Assembly (NCBI GenBank): GCA_026991065.1
Contig: JALXCG010000146.1
Coordinates: forward strand, 1-7,920
Source: JALXCG01 sp026991065 [NCBI: Gemmatimonadota bacterium]
GTDB lineage: Bacteria; GCA-2686955
Length of the DNA stretch: 7,920 nucleotides
Direction of reading: 5' to 3'
A program made the position numbers and the translations under genes. Shown here piece after piece: positions 1,272-4,333 of this stretch. The notes below the pieces were generated by a model, which worked only from the letters and a program-made list of their open reading frames with translations, made no database searches and was not told where the DNA came from. Within the stretch, counting starts at the first letter, position 1, and the number at the start of each line of letters is the position of its first letter.

Positions 1272-3281
1272 ATGGCCAAATCCCTTTTTGCGACCCTCTC
1301 TTTTGCTTCTCTTCTGATCGCTCTACAGGGGCAGGCCGAGGCGGTACAGCGCGTGGTGCTGGCGGAGATCTTCACCAACTCCGGCTGACCCTCCTGTCCC
1401 GCAGCCAACCGTGAGTTGGACAGGTTGCAAGAGCAGTATCCCGGCGCGTTTCAGCCGATTCGTTACCACATGTCATGGCCGTCGCCGTTTGATCCCTTCT
1501 ATTTGGCGAATCCCGAAGAGGCCGATGCCCGGCGCACCTTCTACGGCGTGAACTATGTGCCGAATCTGTGGTACGACGGTGTCTCCAATCCAGGGGCGGT
1601 GGTTGATAACTACGAAACCGCTCTGCTGCAGCGGATGGAGGAATCGAGTCCGCTGGAACTGAGCGTGGAGATCGAGAACAGTTACGCCGCGATCACCGCA
1701 AACGCCGTCGACGAGTTGGGCGGGGATTTTCGTCTGCTGACCGTGCTGATCGAGAATCGCGCGGAGTTGGGCGGCAAAGAATACAACGAGGTGATGCGCA
1801 GCTTTGTCGGTGGAACGCGGGGAACGACGCTGGCGCTGAACCAGGGGGAGAGCTACTCCACGCTGCTGGATTTTGACGTGGCGCCGGAGTGGAATGCCGA
1901 CAATCTGGCGCTGGTGGTGTTTGCCCAGTTGGTGCAGGGCAAAGAGGTACTGCAATGCGCATCGACAGCGATCGCGTTTGATACACCGAAGCTGCAACTG
2001 GGCGAGGTGTCGGTGGATGATTCGGCCGCCGGCGACAATGATCAGCGGCTGGAGGGCGGAGAGTCGGCGGAGATCGTGCTGTCGCTGACAAACCTGGAAC
2101 CGTGGGCCGACGCCGCAGGGGTGCAGATCACCCTCTCAACCGAGGATCCGTCCTTGACCGTGACCGATGGCAGCGGCAGCATCGCCGCGATCGGGGCGGG
2201 CGAGAGCGGCAGCAACACGAGCGATCCCTTCGCCGTGGCCGTGGCGGCCGGCACGGAGCCGCATTGGGCGCTGCTCCATTTCGTGATTTCCGCCAATGAG
2301 GGGGCATTCGAGCGCGAGGCGGAGGCGCGGATTCTGCTCGGGCATCCGCGGGTTCTGCTGCTGGATGATGATGGTGGCGCGGAGTCGGAAGATGCCTATC
2401 AGGCGGCGCTGGACTCGTTGGGCGTGGTGTATGAGCAGTGGGATGTGGCGGCGTCGGGGCTGCCGTCCGGGGATTTCTATGATCGTGCCCAGGAGGTGAT
2501 CTGGTTTACCGGAGAGGTCGCCGGAGGTGGTTTTGATACCGCGGACTTGGCGCTGCTGCAAGCGGCGTTCGACGCTGGCAAGGGGCTCTATCTCTCCGGG
2601 CAGGAGAATGGTCAGGGGCTCAGCCAGATGCCGCTCTTGAGCGAGGTTTTCGGTGCCGAATGCGGCGGCCAGGGCGGCAGTCAGGTGGCCGAGGGCGAGG
2701 CCGGCGATCCGATCGGCGATGGATTGGCGCTGCTGCTGGAACACAATCCGATGACCTGCGAGACGCTGGTGGCGGTTGATGGTGGTGTGGAGATGCTGCA
2801 CTATCTGCCCGGTATGCAGGGCGCCGGAGTTCACAACGAAGTGGCCGGCGGCAAGCGCGCCGTGCTCACAGCGTTCGATTTTTCGGTGGTCAATGAGACC
2901 CAACGCGCGGGATTCATGGCGCCGATCCTGGAGTGGCTGGCGCAGCCCACCGGGGTCGCCGATGGTGATGGTTCCGGCGCCGGCGCGCCGGTGGCTCCGG
3001 CAACCGAGTTCGCCCTCTGGAATGCGCCCAATCCGTTCAATCCGATGACCACGATCAGCTATGCGCTGCCGGTCGCGGGGCGCGTGCGGTTGGCGGTCTA
3101 CTCGTTGCGTGGCGAGCTGGTGGCGACACTGGTGGATGCCCAGCAAGCCCCCGGCAGGTATAGCGTGAGTTGGTTCGGCAGGAGCCAGAGCGGCACAGCG
3201 GTGGCAAGCGGGGTTTACCTGCTTAATCTGGAAGAGAACGGAATCCGGCGGGGATCGCGGAAGATTGTCCTGCTCAAGTGA
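1272..3281 (+). CDS. Putative exported selenoprotein: thioredoxin-fold (Omp28-like) protein with in-frame UGA read as selenocysteine and C-terminal T9SS/FlgD-like sorting domain
   Basis: The gene encodes 669 residues if the TGA at 1386-1388 is read as Sec39. Residues 1-24 are a signal peptide (MAKS, hydrophobic core, QAEA cleavage). Residues 25 to about 140 look like a thioredoxin fold: VVLAEIFTNSG, then U39-P-S-C42 at the CxxC position, helix PAANRELDRL, and YGVNYVP with the expected cis-Pro97. Residues ~150-345 look like beta-rich Ig-like modules. Residues ~361-560 (VLLLDDDGG ... VIWFTG ... GLYLSGQ) match a domain often seen in secreted FCB-group proteins. Residues ~575-669 carry PNPFNP (586-591), SGVYLL and a RKIVLLK tail typical of type IX sorting / FlgD-like domains. 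The likely role is redox chemistry on surface or periplasmic thiols, by analogy with CxxC homologues. The ATG has only a weak GTGAG upstream. A start after the TGA would lose the signal peptide and the redox motif. Other readings are a nonsense mutation or a sequencing error. Confidence 0.8.
1386..1388 (+). other. In-frame TGA, proposed selenocysteine codon (Sec39)
   Basis: The TGA lies between FTNSG and PSC, with intact coding sense on both sides in one frame. In thioredoxin-like proteins the same position (FTxxWCxxC-type motifs) holds the nucleophilic cysteine. Replacing that exact cysteine by Sec is the commonest way redox selenoproteins differ from their homologues. A random stop mutation would hit this position only rarely. 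Confidence 0.8.
1393..1424 (+). promoter_or_regulatory. Bacterial SECIS-like hairpin immediately downstream of the Sec codon
   Basis: Lower stem CCTGT (1393-1397) pairs with ACAGG (1420-1424). Upper stem CCAAC (1405-1409) pairs with GTTGG (1415-1419). The apical loop is CGTGA (1410-1414) and the 5' side bulge is 1398-1404. An alternative pairs CCTGTCC (1393-1399) with GGACAGG (1418-1424) plus AAC/GTT and keeps the same loop. The loop begins 21 nt after the TGA and has G at position 2. Both agree with known bSECIS rules: a G in the first two loop bases and a loop roughly 16-37 nt from UGA. It would recruit SelB with Sec-tRNA. Pairing was done by eye, with no energy calculation. Confidence 0.75.
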
Positions 3282-4333
3282 TGTCTGTTGACCCGCTCGC
3301 TCTGCTGATCGATGAACATGGGCTGGCCGCGTATCTGGCCACGCTTTCCACTGCGTGGCTGCTGCTCATCATTGTTCTGACCATCCTCACCCTCTCCAAG
3401 GGGGCGGACTGGATGATCGAGGGCGTGGTGGCGCTGGCCCGGCGCACCGGCCTGCCAAGGATCGTCATCGGAGCGACCATCGTCTCTTTGGGCACCACCA
3501 TGCCGGAGGCATTCGTTTCGGTGATGGCGGCGTTCATGGGAGATCCCGGGCTGGCGCTGGGCAATGGCGTGGGGTCGATCATTGCCGATACCGGGCTGAT
3601 TTTCGGTGTCACCGCCCTGGTGGCGAAAGTGCCGGCCGATCGGTTCATCTTGAACCGGACCGGTTGGGTACAGTTGGCAGCGGCGCTGCTCCTGGTGCTC
3701 ATGGCGACGATCGCCCGCTTGGGAAGCGGCGCTGCCGAACCGGTGCTGGGGCGCGGTGTTGGTGTGTTCTTCCTGGTCTTGCTGCTGGCGTATCTCTACA
3801 TGTCCTATGTCTGGGCACGCGAGCACTCTCCCGGCGGCGCGGCAGCCGACCCTGACGAGGGGGCGCTGCCGTCGCTCCTGCGCAGCTTCGCAGAGATTGT
3901 CGGGGGGATCGGGCTGGTAATCTTGAGCGCCCGGGTGCTGGTGCCGGGGGCCGCGGAGGTGGCGGCTCGCTTTGGTGTTCCGCATGACGTGATCGCCGCC
4001 ACCATGGTGGCCTTCGGAACCTCGCTGCCGGAACTGGTCACGGCTCTGGCGGCGGTGCGCAAGGGGCATCCGGAGATCGCGGTGGGCAACGTAGTGGGCG
4101 CGGATGTGCTGAACTGCCTCTTTGTGATCGGCGCGGCGGCTTGCGCCAGTCCGCTGCAGATTCCACCGACCTTTTACACGTTCCACTTTCCCGCAATGGT
4201 GGCGATTCTGATCTCGTTTCGGATCTTCAGCATGCGGGCCGCGGGGGGCTATTTTCGCCGCTGGCACGGCGGCTGGCTCTTGTCCCTCTACTTGATCTAC
4301 ATCACGTTGCAGTTCGTGGCGACGCACCAGTAG
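3281..4333 (+). CDS. CaCA-family cation antiporter (Na+/Ca2+ exchanger type)
   Basis: This 350-residue integral membrane protein has the two inverted alpha repeats of the calcium/cation antiporter superfamily. Alpha-1 is GATIVSLGTTMPEAFVSVMAA with the ion-binding Glu76, then GNGVGSIIADTGLIFG. Alpha-2 is AATMVAFGTSLPELVTALAA with Glu251, then GNVVGADVLNCLFVIG. About ten hydrophobic segments are split by a polar loop around 185-205 (EHSPGGAAADPDEG). The family exchanges Na+ or H+ for Ca2+ or related cations across the inner membrane. In alpha-1 the usual GSNIFN reads GSIIAD, so ion preference may differ from classical exchangers. The ATG overlaps the upstream stop (TGATG) and has no strong ribosome-binding site, suggesting translational coupling. 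A GTG at 3278 is an alternative start adding one residue. Confidence 0.9.
   Translation: MSVDPLALLIDEHGLAAYLATLSTAWLLLIIVLTILTLSKGADWMIEGVVALARRTGLPRIVIGATIVSLGTTMPEAFVSVMAAFMGDPGLALGNGVGSIIADTGLIFGVTALVAKVPADRFILNRTGWVQLAAALLLVLMATIARLGSGAAEPVLGRGVGVFFLVLLLAYLYMSYVWAREHSPGGAAADPDEGALPSLLRSFAEIVGGIGLVILSARVLVPGAAEVAARFGVPHDVIAATMVAFGTSLPELVTALAAVRKGHPEIAVGNVVGADVLNCLFVIGAAACASPLQIPPTFYTFHFPAMVAILISFRIFSMRAAGGYFRRWHGGWLLSLYLIYITLQFVATHQ

What the first reader, a model, noticed from the sequence alone, without database searches (positions are those of the whole stretch)
1272..3281. Unannotated selenoprotein: in-frame TGA at the first position of a thioredoxin CxxC motif
A signal-peptide stub (1272-1385) and a 620-codon frame are in the same phase, separated by one TGA. 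The joined product reads FTNSG-U-P-S-C and is a continuous thioredoxin-fold protein with the expected cis-Pro97. Standard gene callers would report a truncated gene beginning at TTG 1416 or later, or a pseudogene. Sec exactly on the nucleophilic cysteine position is the hallmark of redox selenoproteins.
Basis: partly seen in the sequence, partly recalled or inferred. Interest (0 to 1): 0.92.

Follow-up and report, generated by a model that had tools for sequence, protein, structure and literature searches.

The report
Divergent Omp28/HBP35-like secreted thioredoxin selenoprotein
The gene is very probably a real selenoprotein: a secreted thioredoxin-like protein whose key active-site residue is selenocysteine read from an internal TGA; it is a divergent relative of a family first reported from ocean samples in 2008, so it extends a known kind and does not found a new one.

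Summary
A 669-codon gene (1272-3281, +) has one in-frame TGA (1386-1388) at the first position of a thioredoxin-type UxxC motif, with the cis-Pro at residue 97. The window's genome encodes tRNA-Sec, SelA, SelB and SelD, and its SelD itself needs a TGA read as Sec. In a search of 192 genomes, 25 of 66 scored homologous stretches carry TGA at the equivalent site, 38 carry Cys, 3 neither. All 15 genomes with a TGA copy have selA over the cut-off, against 6 of 15 with Cys copies only. A SECIS-like hairpin follows the TGA in 21 of 26 Sec genes, against 15 of 38 Cys genes. The Trx-Omp28 module is predicted to fold like P. gingivalis HBP35, a T9SS-secreted protein with thioredoxin activity. The kind is known: NCBIfam NF045500 'Omp28-related selenoprotein' is the GOS_C family of 2008. 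This protein scores 48-52 bits against a cut-off of 200, so it is a divergent variant and cannot be filed as a member. No close orthologue was found. Sec insertion, export and substrate are inferred.

The parts
1272..3281 (+). Sec-containing CDS, 669 codons plus stop TGA 3279-3281
   Evidence: homologues with open frames of similar length, e.g. 693, 685 and 673 codons
1272..1343 (+). signal peptide, residues 1-24 (MAKSLF...GQAEA), lies wholly before the TGA
   Evidence: read by eye; similar hydrophobic starts in rows; no signal-peptide program was run
1386..1388 (+). TGA read as selenocysteine 39 (first position of UxxC)
1395..1397 (+). TGT, Cys42 of the UPSC motif (resolving cysteine by analogy with thioredoxins)
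   Evidence: nearly invariant
1393..1424 (+). SECIS-like hairpin: inner stem CCAAC 1405-1409 / GTTGG 1415-1419, loop CGTGA 1410-1414; outer stem CCTGT 1393-1397 / ACAGG 1420-1424 (outer stem seen by eye)
   Evidence: motif scan; the minimum-energy fold keeps the outer stem but pairs the inner part otherwise (z -1.45); the inner stem of L047 is CCAGC/GCTGG, an A-U to G-C change on both sides
1560..1562 (+). cis-Pro97 of the thioredoxin fold
   Evidence: invariant column
1539..1973 (+). Omp28 (PF11551) domain, residues 90-234
   Evidence: 34.6 bits with the whole protein, just under the cut-off of 34.9; 37.3 bits with the first 263 aa
3075..3233 (+). C-terminal FlgD_ig (PF13860) tail, residues 602-654, over cut-off; T9SS sorting-domain models match only below their cut-offs

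Best explanation
The gene encodes an exported thioredoxin-fold oxidoreductase in which selenocysteine, inserted at UGA 1386-1388 by SelB and tRNA-Sec with the help of a hairpin just downstream, replaces the nucleophilic cysteine of the active-site CxxC. After removal of the signal peptide, the Trx-Omp28 module (HBP35-like fold) carries out selenol/thiol-disulfide chemistry on proteins or small oxidants outside the cytoplasm. The C-terminal tail may let the type IX system carry it to the surface. Shown here: the in-frame TGA, its conservation as Sec or Cys, the Sec machinery in the genome, the hairpin enrichment. Inferred: Sec insertion itself, export route, redox direction and substrate.
For: tRNA-Sec, SelB, SelA, SelD with its own Sec codon. 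Site tally 25 TGA / 38 Cys / 3 other of 66. selA over cut-off in 15 of 15 genomes with a TGA copy and 6 of 15 with Cys copies only (Fisher p 0.0007); base rate 87 of 192. Hairpin motif in 21 of 26 Sec genes against 15 of 38 Cys genes (p 0.001) and 222 of 884 downstream windows of the same Sec genes. R27, V29, E32, C42, R87, Y91, P97, D102 and G103, on both sides of the TGA, invariant or nearly so in 32 rows. AlphaFold2 model of residues 24-263: pLDDT 87; best VIA-align match HBP35 5y1a, Z 23.7, rmsd 2.5, 211 aligned. SprA homologue in the genome; 4 of 5 relatives scanned have a T9SS sorting domain over the cut-off.
Against: No direct evidence of Sec insertion. The tRNA-Sec model is over its cut-off in 5 of 14 control genomes, while selA is over its cut-off in 1 and selB and selD in 2 each, so that hit alone would not prove Sec use. 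The window's hairpin alone is not outstanding (z -1.45; 14 of 200 shuffles fold as well) and 5 of 26 Sec genes lack the motif as defined. No close orthologue is held: the best match is 39% identical, and the same-family genome G001 has only two Cys copies. The T9SS tail is below the curated cut-off for the sorting domain in this protein, so the export route is weakly supported.
Confidence: 0.93

Rival explanations
1. Sequencing or assembly error, or a recent nonsense mutation, turned a Cys codon (TGC/TGT) into TGA; the gene is a Cys protein or a pseudogene.
For: The genome is fragmented (902 contigs); Cys is the commonest residue at this site in homologues (38 of 66); no close orthologue confirms the TGA.
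Against: TGA recurs at the same site in 25 of 66 homologous stretches, from 15 genomes, each with selA over the cut-off; the genome needs TGA as Sec in SelD; the rest of the frame is intact over 630 codons.
Confidence: 0.04
2. TGA is a true stop and translation restarts downstream (for example TTG 1416), giving a protein without signal peptide.
For: the ORF listing gives a 621-aa ORF from TTG 1416.
Against: Such a product would lack the signal peptide, the first strand of the thioredoxin fold and the CxxC; these are encoded in phase before or at the TGA and are conserved in homologues.
Confidence: 0.02
3. TGA is decoded as another residue (for example Trp, by a reassigned code or readthrough).
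For: A frame open through TGA is by itself compatible with any decoding.
Against: The aligned residue is Cys in 38 of the 41 scored rows without TGA at the site; there is a tRNA-Sec over cut-off; and the gene's own terminal stop is TGA, so TGA is not generally reassigned.
Confidence: 0.01

Closest known systems
NCBIfam NF045500 'Omp28-related selenoprotein' = 'Hypothetical protein GOS_C' (PLoS Genet 2008, PMC2398784, passages seen; the two names are linked in the review PMC13188914, passages seen)
   Same: Trx-like fold, UxxC motif with Sec first, Omp28-related; the Trx part of this protein matches the profile (48-52 bits)
   Different: Far below the curated cut-off (200 bits), and the best stretch covers only profile positions 33-118 of 377. 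A Neomarinimicrobiota protein found here (L093) scores 171 bits over positions 43-375 and is a closer relative of that family, though also under the cut-off.
Porphyromonas gingivalis HBP35 (PDB 5y1a; abstracts and section lists of PMC2907840 and PMC3120885 seen)
   Same: First by VIA-align for the Trx-Omp28 model (Z 23.7, rmsd 2.5, 211 aligned); the first Cys of its FTAEWCGYC aligns to Sec39 in the profile match. By the abstracts it has thioredoxin activity in vitro, abolished by mutating the two active-site cysteines, and reaches the cell surface through the Por (type IX) system by its C-terminal domain
   Different: Cys, not Sec; binds hemin; shorter (344-residue chain, against 669). Foldseek's own list did not show it among its first 50 rows.
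Omp28 family outer membrane lipoprotein (NF033782; Pfam PF11551; PDB 2r2c)
   Same: 27 of 32 aligned rows match NF033782 and 25 of 32 match PF11551 at E 0.001
   Different: Below the NF033782 cut-off (45-50 of 150 bits); the start of this protein shows no lipobox by eye
Atu2684 (PDB 2axo; that it belongs to DUF1223 is recalled)
   Same: First by Foldseek and second by VIA-align (Z 19.4, rmsd 2.9, 195 aligned); best solved structure by profile
   Different: Cys at the site; 270-residue chain; the window protein is below the DUF1223 cut-off (19.7 of 30.7 bits)

Membership tests
bacterial selenoprotein | in-frame TGA aligned with Cys of homologues | tested here: met
   25 TGA, 38 Cys, 3 other of 66
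bacterial selenoprotein | tRNA-Sec, SelA, SelB, SelD in the genome | tested here: met
   all over cut-off; SelB lies on two overlapping contigs
bacterial selenoprotein | SECIS hairpin shortly downstream of the UGA | tested here: met
   motif present in the window gene (5-bp stem, loop CGUGA starting 24 nt after the U of UGA) and enriched across Sec genes, 21 of 26; single-sequence folding alone inconclusive
bacterial selenoprotein | Sec shown in the protein | not testable with these tools
   needs mass spectrometry or 75Se labelling
NF045500 Omp28-related selenoprotein (GOS_C) | score over the curated cut-off of 200 bits | tested here: not met
   48.1 bits for the whole protein, 51.9 bits for the first 263 aa
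NF045500 Omp28-related selenoprotein (GOS_C) | Trx-like fold with UxxC | tested here: met
Omp28 (PF11551) | score over Pfam's gathering score 34.9 | tested here: inconclusive
   34.6 bits with the whole protein, 37.3 bits with the first 263 aa
type IX secretion cargo | C-terminal sorting domain over cut-off | tested here: not met
   TIGR04183 15.9 of 23 bits, PF18962 14.6 of 27 bits; FlgD_ig met, 29.8 of 27 bits
type IX secretion cargo | SprA translocon in the genome | tested here: met
   PF14349 85.2 bits, cut-off 27; rings in 0 of 14 control genomes

The most novel reading that the evidence does not exclude
A surface-displayed, type IX-secreted branch of selenocysteine thioredoxins (HBP35-like), present in several copies in some genomes and spread over several uncultured phyla (among the named loci: TA06, Gemmatimonadetes/Gemmatimonadota and Neomarinimicrobiota MAGs), in which Sec and Cys have replaced one another repeatedly, so that selenium chemistry is placed outside the cell.
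Probability: 0.35. Interest if true: 0.6.

Novelty: new variant of a known kind. Interest (0 to 1): 0.42.

Why it matters
By inference, a gene caller using the standard code would drop the signal peptide and the active site of this protein and of its relatives; 14 further genomes among the 192 searched carry TGA copies. The set links an ocean-survey 'hypothetical protein' family (GOS_C) to the HBP35/Omp28 fold, which gives it a testable function (thioredoxin activity, surface export). In this sample Sec and Cys copies are mixed on the tree (15 changes at the least by parsimony; only 3 forced by strongly supported branches), a useful case for asking why Sec is kept outside the cytoplasm.

Tried and rejected
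Fossil SECIS in Cys paralogues: the three hits among the first 15 Cys genes all came from genomes with selA, but over 38 Cys genes the motif is as common in selA+ genomes (9 of 22) as in selA- ones (6 of 16); dropped.

Free-energy z-scores of the 54 nt from the TGA: Sec mean -1.23 (n 25), Cys mean -0.58 (n 7), one-sided p 0.095; not decisive, so a constrained hairpin motif was used. The motif (perfect stem of at least 4 pairs with at least 2 G-C, loop 3-7 nt with G in its first two positions, loop starting 17-30 nt after the T of TGA) was set after looking, so its p-values are somewhat optimistic. The Cys set is the 38 Cys rows from the genome search; the 8 Cys rows from genome contigs tested (0 of 8 with the motif) are not in it.

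Closer orthologues: the phylum of the window holds 2 genomes here, that of G103 1, of G106 2, of G059 1; no close orthologue was found. One genome new (G192) has two matches without TGA and is not in the tallies. Rfam found nothing in the window at gathering thresholds.

The tree used 59 rows: 26 Sec and 33 Cys. Of the 38 Cys rows, 27 went in and 11 short ones were left out (two short Sec rows, L041 and L046, were kept); 6 Cys rows came from genome-contig loci. It is a 'quick' tree with 32 of 56 inner branches under 80; 11 to 17 of 500 shuffles of the labels need as few changes.

Rows dropped: of 67 rows, one (G103:C121:35606-35797, a fragment without the site) was not scored. The three rows with neither Sec nor Cys (G106:C186:37415, G105:C4, G103:C19:60327) were left out of the hairpin and tree tests. 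The script printed all its rows and then failed on its last line (saving to a file).

Print searches: no held paper has both 'Omp28' and 'selenoprotein', none has 'DUF1223' and 'selenocysteine', and the one paper with 'selenoprotein' and 'type IX secretion' is, by its listing, a rabbit diet study; most subscription papers and bioRxiv are not held. Of the deep-Sep paper (PMC12013277) I saw passages only; 'thioredoxin' and 'outer membrane' do not occur in its main text.

Full report
What is there. The window lies on contig C146 of a 4.14 Mb, 902-contig genome, 83.8% complete. In the + strand an ATG at 1272 opens a frame that meets TGA at 1386-1388 and then runs to TGA 3279-3281. Read with TGA as Sec the product is 669 residues: a signal-peptide-like start (residues 1-24, read by eye), a thioredoxin-type active site FTNSG-U-PSC with Sec39 and Cys42, Pro97, an Omp28 domain (PF11551, residues 90-234, at the edge of its cut-off) and a C-terminal FlgD_ig domain (PF13860, residues 602-654, over cut-off). 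The T9SS sorting-domain models match only below their cut-offs.

Does the genome make selenocysteine? Yes, on sequence grounds. It has a tRNA-Sec over the Rfam cut-off (73.5 bits, cut-off 47; ARAGORN, anticodon TCA), SelA (502.8 bits), SelB (341.3 bits on C45; the C-terminal piece on C415 overlaps the end of the C45 piece by some 40 residues) and SelD (317.8 bits with one TGA inside). Controls: over the cut-off in 5 of 14 well-known genomes for the tRNA, 2 for selB, 1 for selA, 2 for selD, so the four together weigh more than the tRNA hit alone. The SelD reads MKIELTKLVPAGGUARKLNAEDL, a second gene in the same genome whose frame needs TGA as Sec; that this is the usual Sec/Cys place of SelD is recalled.

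Do relatives agree? A six-frame search of 192 genomes found matches in 30. I scored 66 of the 67 matching rows at residue 39: 25 have TGA (23 by pairwise alignment, G106:C24, and G135:C176 as UxxC two residues along), 38 have Cys and 3 have neither (read as Asn, Met and Ser). The 26th row with a TGA (G103:C5) is a Cys copy whose TGA is its terminal stop. All 15 genomes with a TGA copy have selA over the cut-off, against 6 of the 15 with Cys copies only and 87 of 192 overall (Fisher p 0.0007 for 15/15 against 6/15). One of the 15, G105, has a selA match with three stops inside. A genome-contig scan gave 16 named loci, of which 5 carry TGA (two from candidate division TA06 SM23_40, one each from Gemmatimonadetes J002, Gemmatimonadota bin29 and a Neomarinimicrobiota MAG) and 11 carry Cys (Krumholzibacteriia, LCP-89, Prevotellaceae/Prevotella, Melioribacteraceae, Ignavibacteriales). 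The sequence on both sides of the TGA is conserved: R27, V29, E32, Cys/Sec39, Cys42, R87, Y91, P97, D102 and G103 (32 rows). None of these relatives is close: the best is 39% identical, and the same-family genome G001 holds two Cys copies only.

SECIS. The window has a hairpin with an inner stem CCAAC/GTTGG, loop CGUGA, and an outer stem CCTGT/ACAGG (1393-1424). Alone it is not exceptional (z -1.45), and the minimum-energy fold pairs the inner part in another way. Across the family, a stem of at least 4 pairs whose loop has G in its first two positions and starts 17-30 nt after the T of TGA is present in 21 of 26 Sec genes, against 8.5 expected from shuffles and 222 of 884 windows further down the same genes, and against 15 of 38 Cys genes (p 0.001). 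With at least 5 pairs it is 16 of 26 against 10 of 38 (p 0.005). Four of the Sec loops are GGUC. The motif was chosen after a first look at the folds, so these p-values lean to the optimistic side.

Structure and function. AlphaFold2 on residues 24-263 with 15 sequences gave pLDDT 87, pTM 0.84. Foldseek puts Atu2684 (2axo) first and Omp28 (2r2c) next; HBP35 is not among its first 50 rows. VIA-align, over the chains Foldseek ranks highest, puts HBP35 of P. gingivalis first (5y1a, Z 23.7, rmsd 2.5, 211 aligned), then 2axo (Z 19.4, rmsd 2.9, 195 aligned) and 2r2c (Z 9.3, rmsd 3.0, 111 aligned). By sequence profile the first cysteine of HBP35's FTAEWCGYC sits at Sec39. According to their abstracts, HBP35 has thioredoxin activity in vitro that is lost when its two active-site cysteines are mutated (PMC2907840), and it is carried to the cell surface by the Por secretion system through its C-terminal domain (PMC3120885). 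The window genome has a SprA homologue, and 4 of 5 relatives scanned carry a T9SS sorting domain over the cut-off, but the window protein's own tail does not reach it. The likely reading is an exported, possibly surface-displayed selenol/thiol oxidoreductase. The substrate and the electron partner are unknown; the export route is the weakest step.

What is known. NCBIfam has NF045500, 'Omp28-related selenoprotein'. [quoted passage not shown] So a Sec form of this fold was known. The window protein reaches 48-52 bits against the family's cut-off of 200; 31 of 32 aligned rows match the model at E 0.001 or better, the best at 1.3e-21. A Neomarinimicrobiota protein (L093) scores 171 bits along nearly the whole model, while relatives from TA06, Gemmatimonadetes and Gemmatimonadota (L079, L080, L084; read from the start of the match to the stop) score 26-60 bits. 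I therefore call the window protein a divergent variant of a known kind, matched by that model in its N-terminal part only, and do not file it as a member of NF045500.

Evolution. On a quick tree of 59 rows, Sec and Cys copies are mixed: at least 15 changes by parsimony, against about 19.5 for shuffled labels (11 to 17 of 500 shuffles as low); strongly supported branches force only 3. Single genomes hold several Sec copies together with Cys copies (G103, G106, G059, G100, G070).

Verdict. The interest is moderate because the kind was already known.

Noticed in passing
L052 (G106:C186:32800-45900): Five Omp28-family genes in a row with, in order, Cys, Asn (active site lost), Sec, Sec and Cys at the site; between the first and second lies an unidentified open frame of about 550 codons.
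   Followed up: partly
L095 (G000:C739:1756-2676, -): SelD of the window's genome is itself a selenoprotein (GGUARK).
   Followed up: yes
L025 (G135:C176:178728-179414): Sec copy with an extra Cys two residues before Sec (CGUAAC) and an 8-bp hairpin with a GGUC loop after the TGA.
   Followed up: no
L084 (Gemmatimonadota bin29): A Sec Omp28-like protein that ends in a dockerin type I domain instead of a FlgD_ig/T9SS tail.
   Followed up: no
G105:C83:7374-8537: The selA match of a genome with a TGA copy has 2 TGA and 1 TAG inside: frameshift, decayed gene or assembly error.
   Followed up: no
L063 (G000:C810) and L066 (G001:C244): Two Cys Omp28-like paralogues in each of the two genomes of the window's family, pairing off as likely orthologues on the tree.
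   Followed up: partly
3279-3283: The Sec gene's stop overlaps the start of a sodium/calcium exchanger gene (TGATG; PF01699), so the two may be translated together.
   Followed up: no
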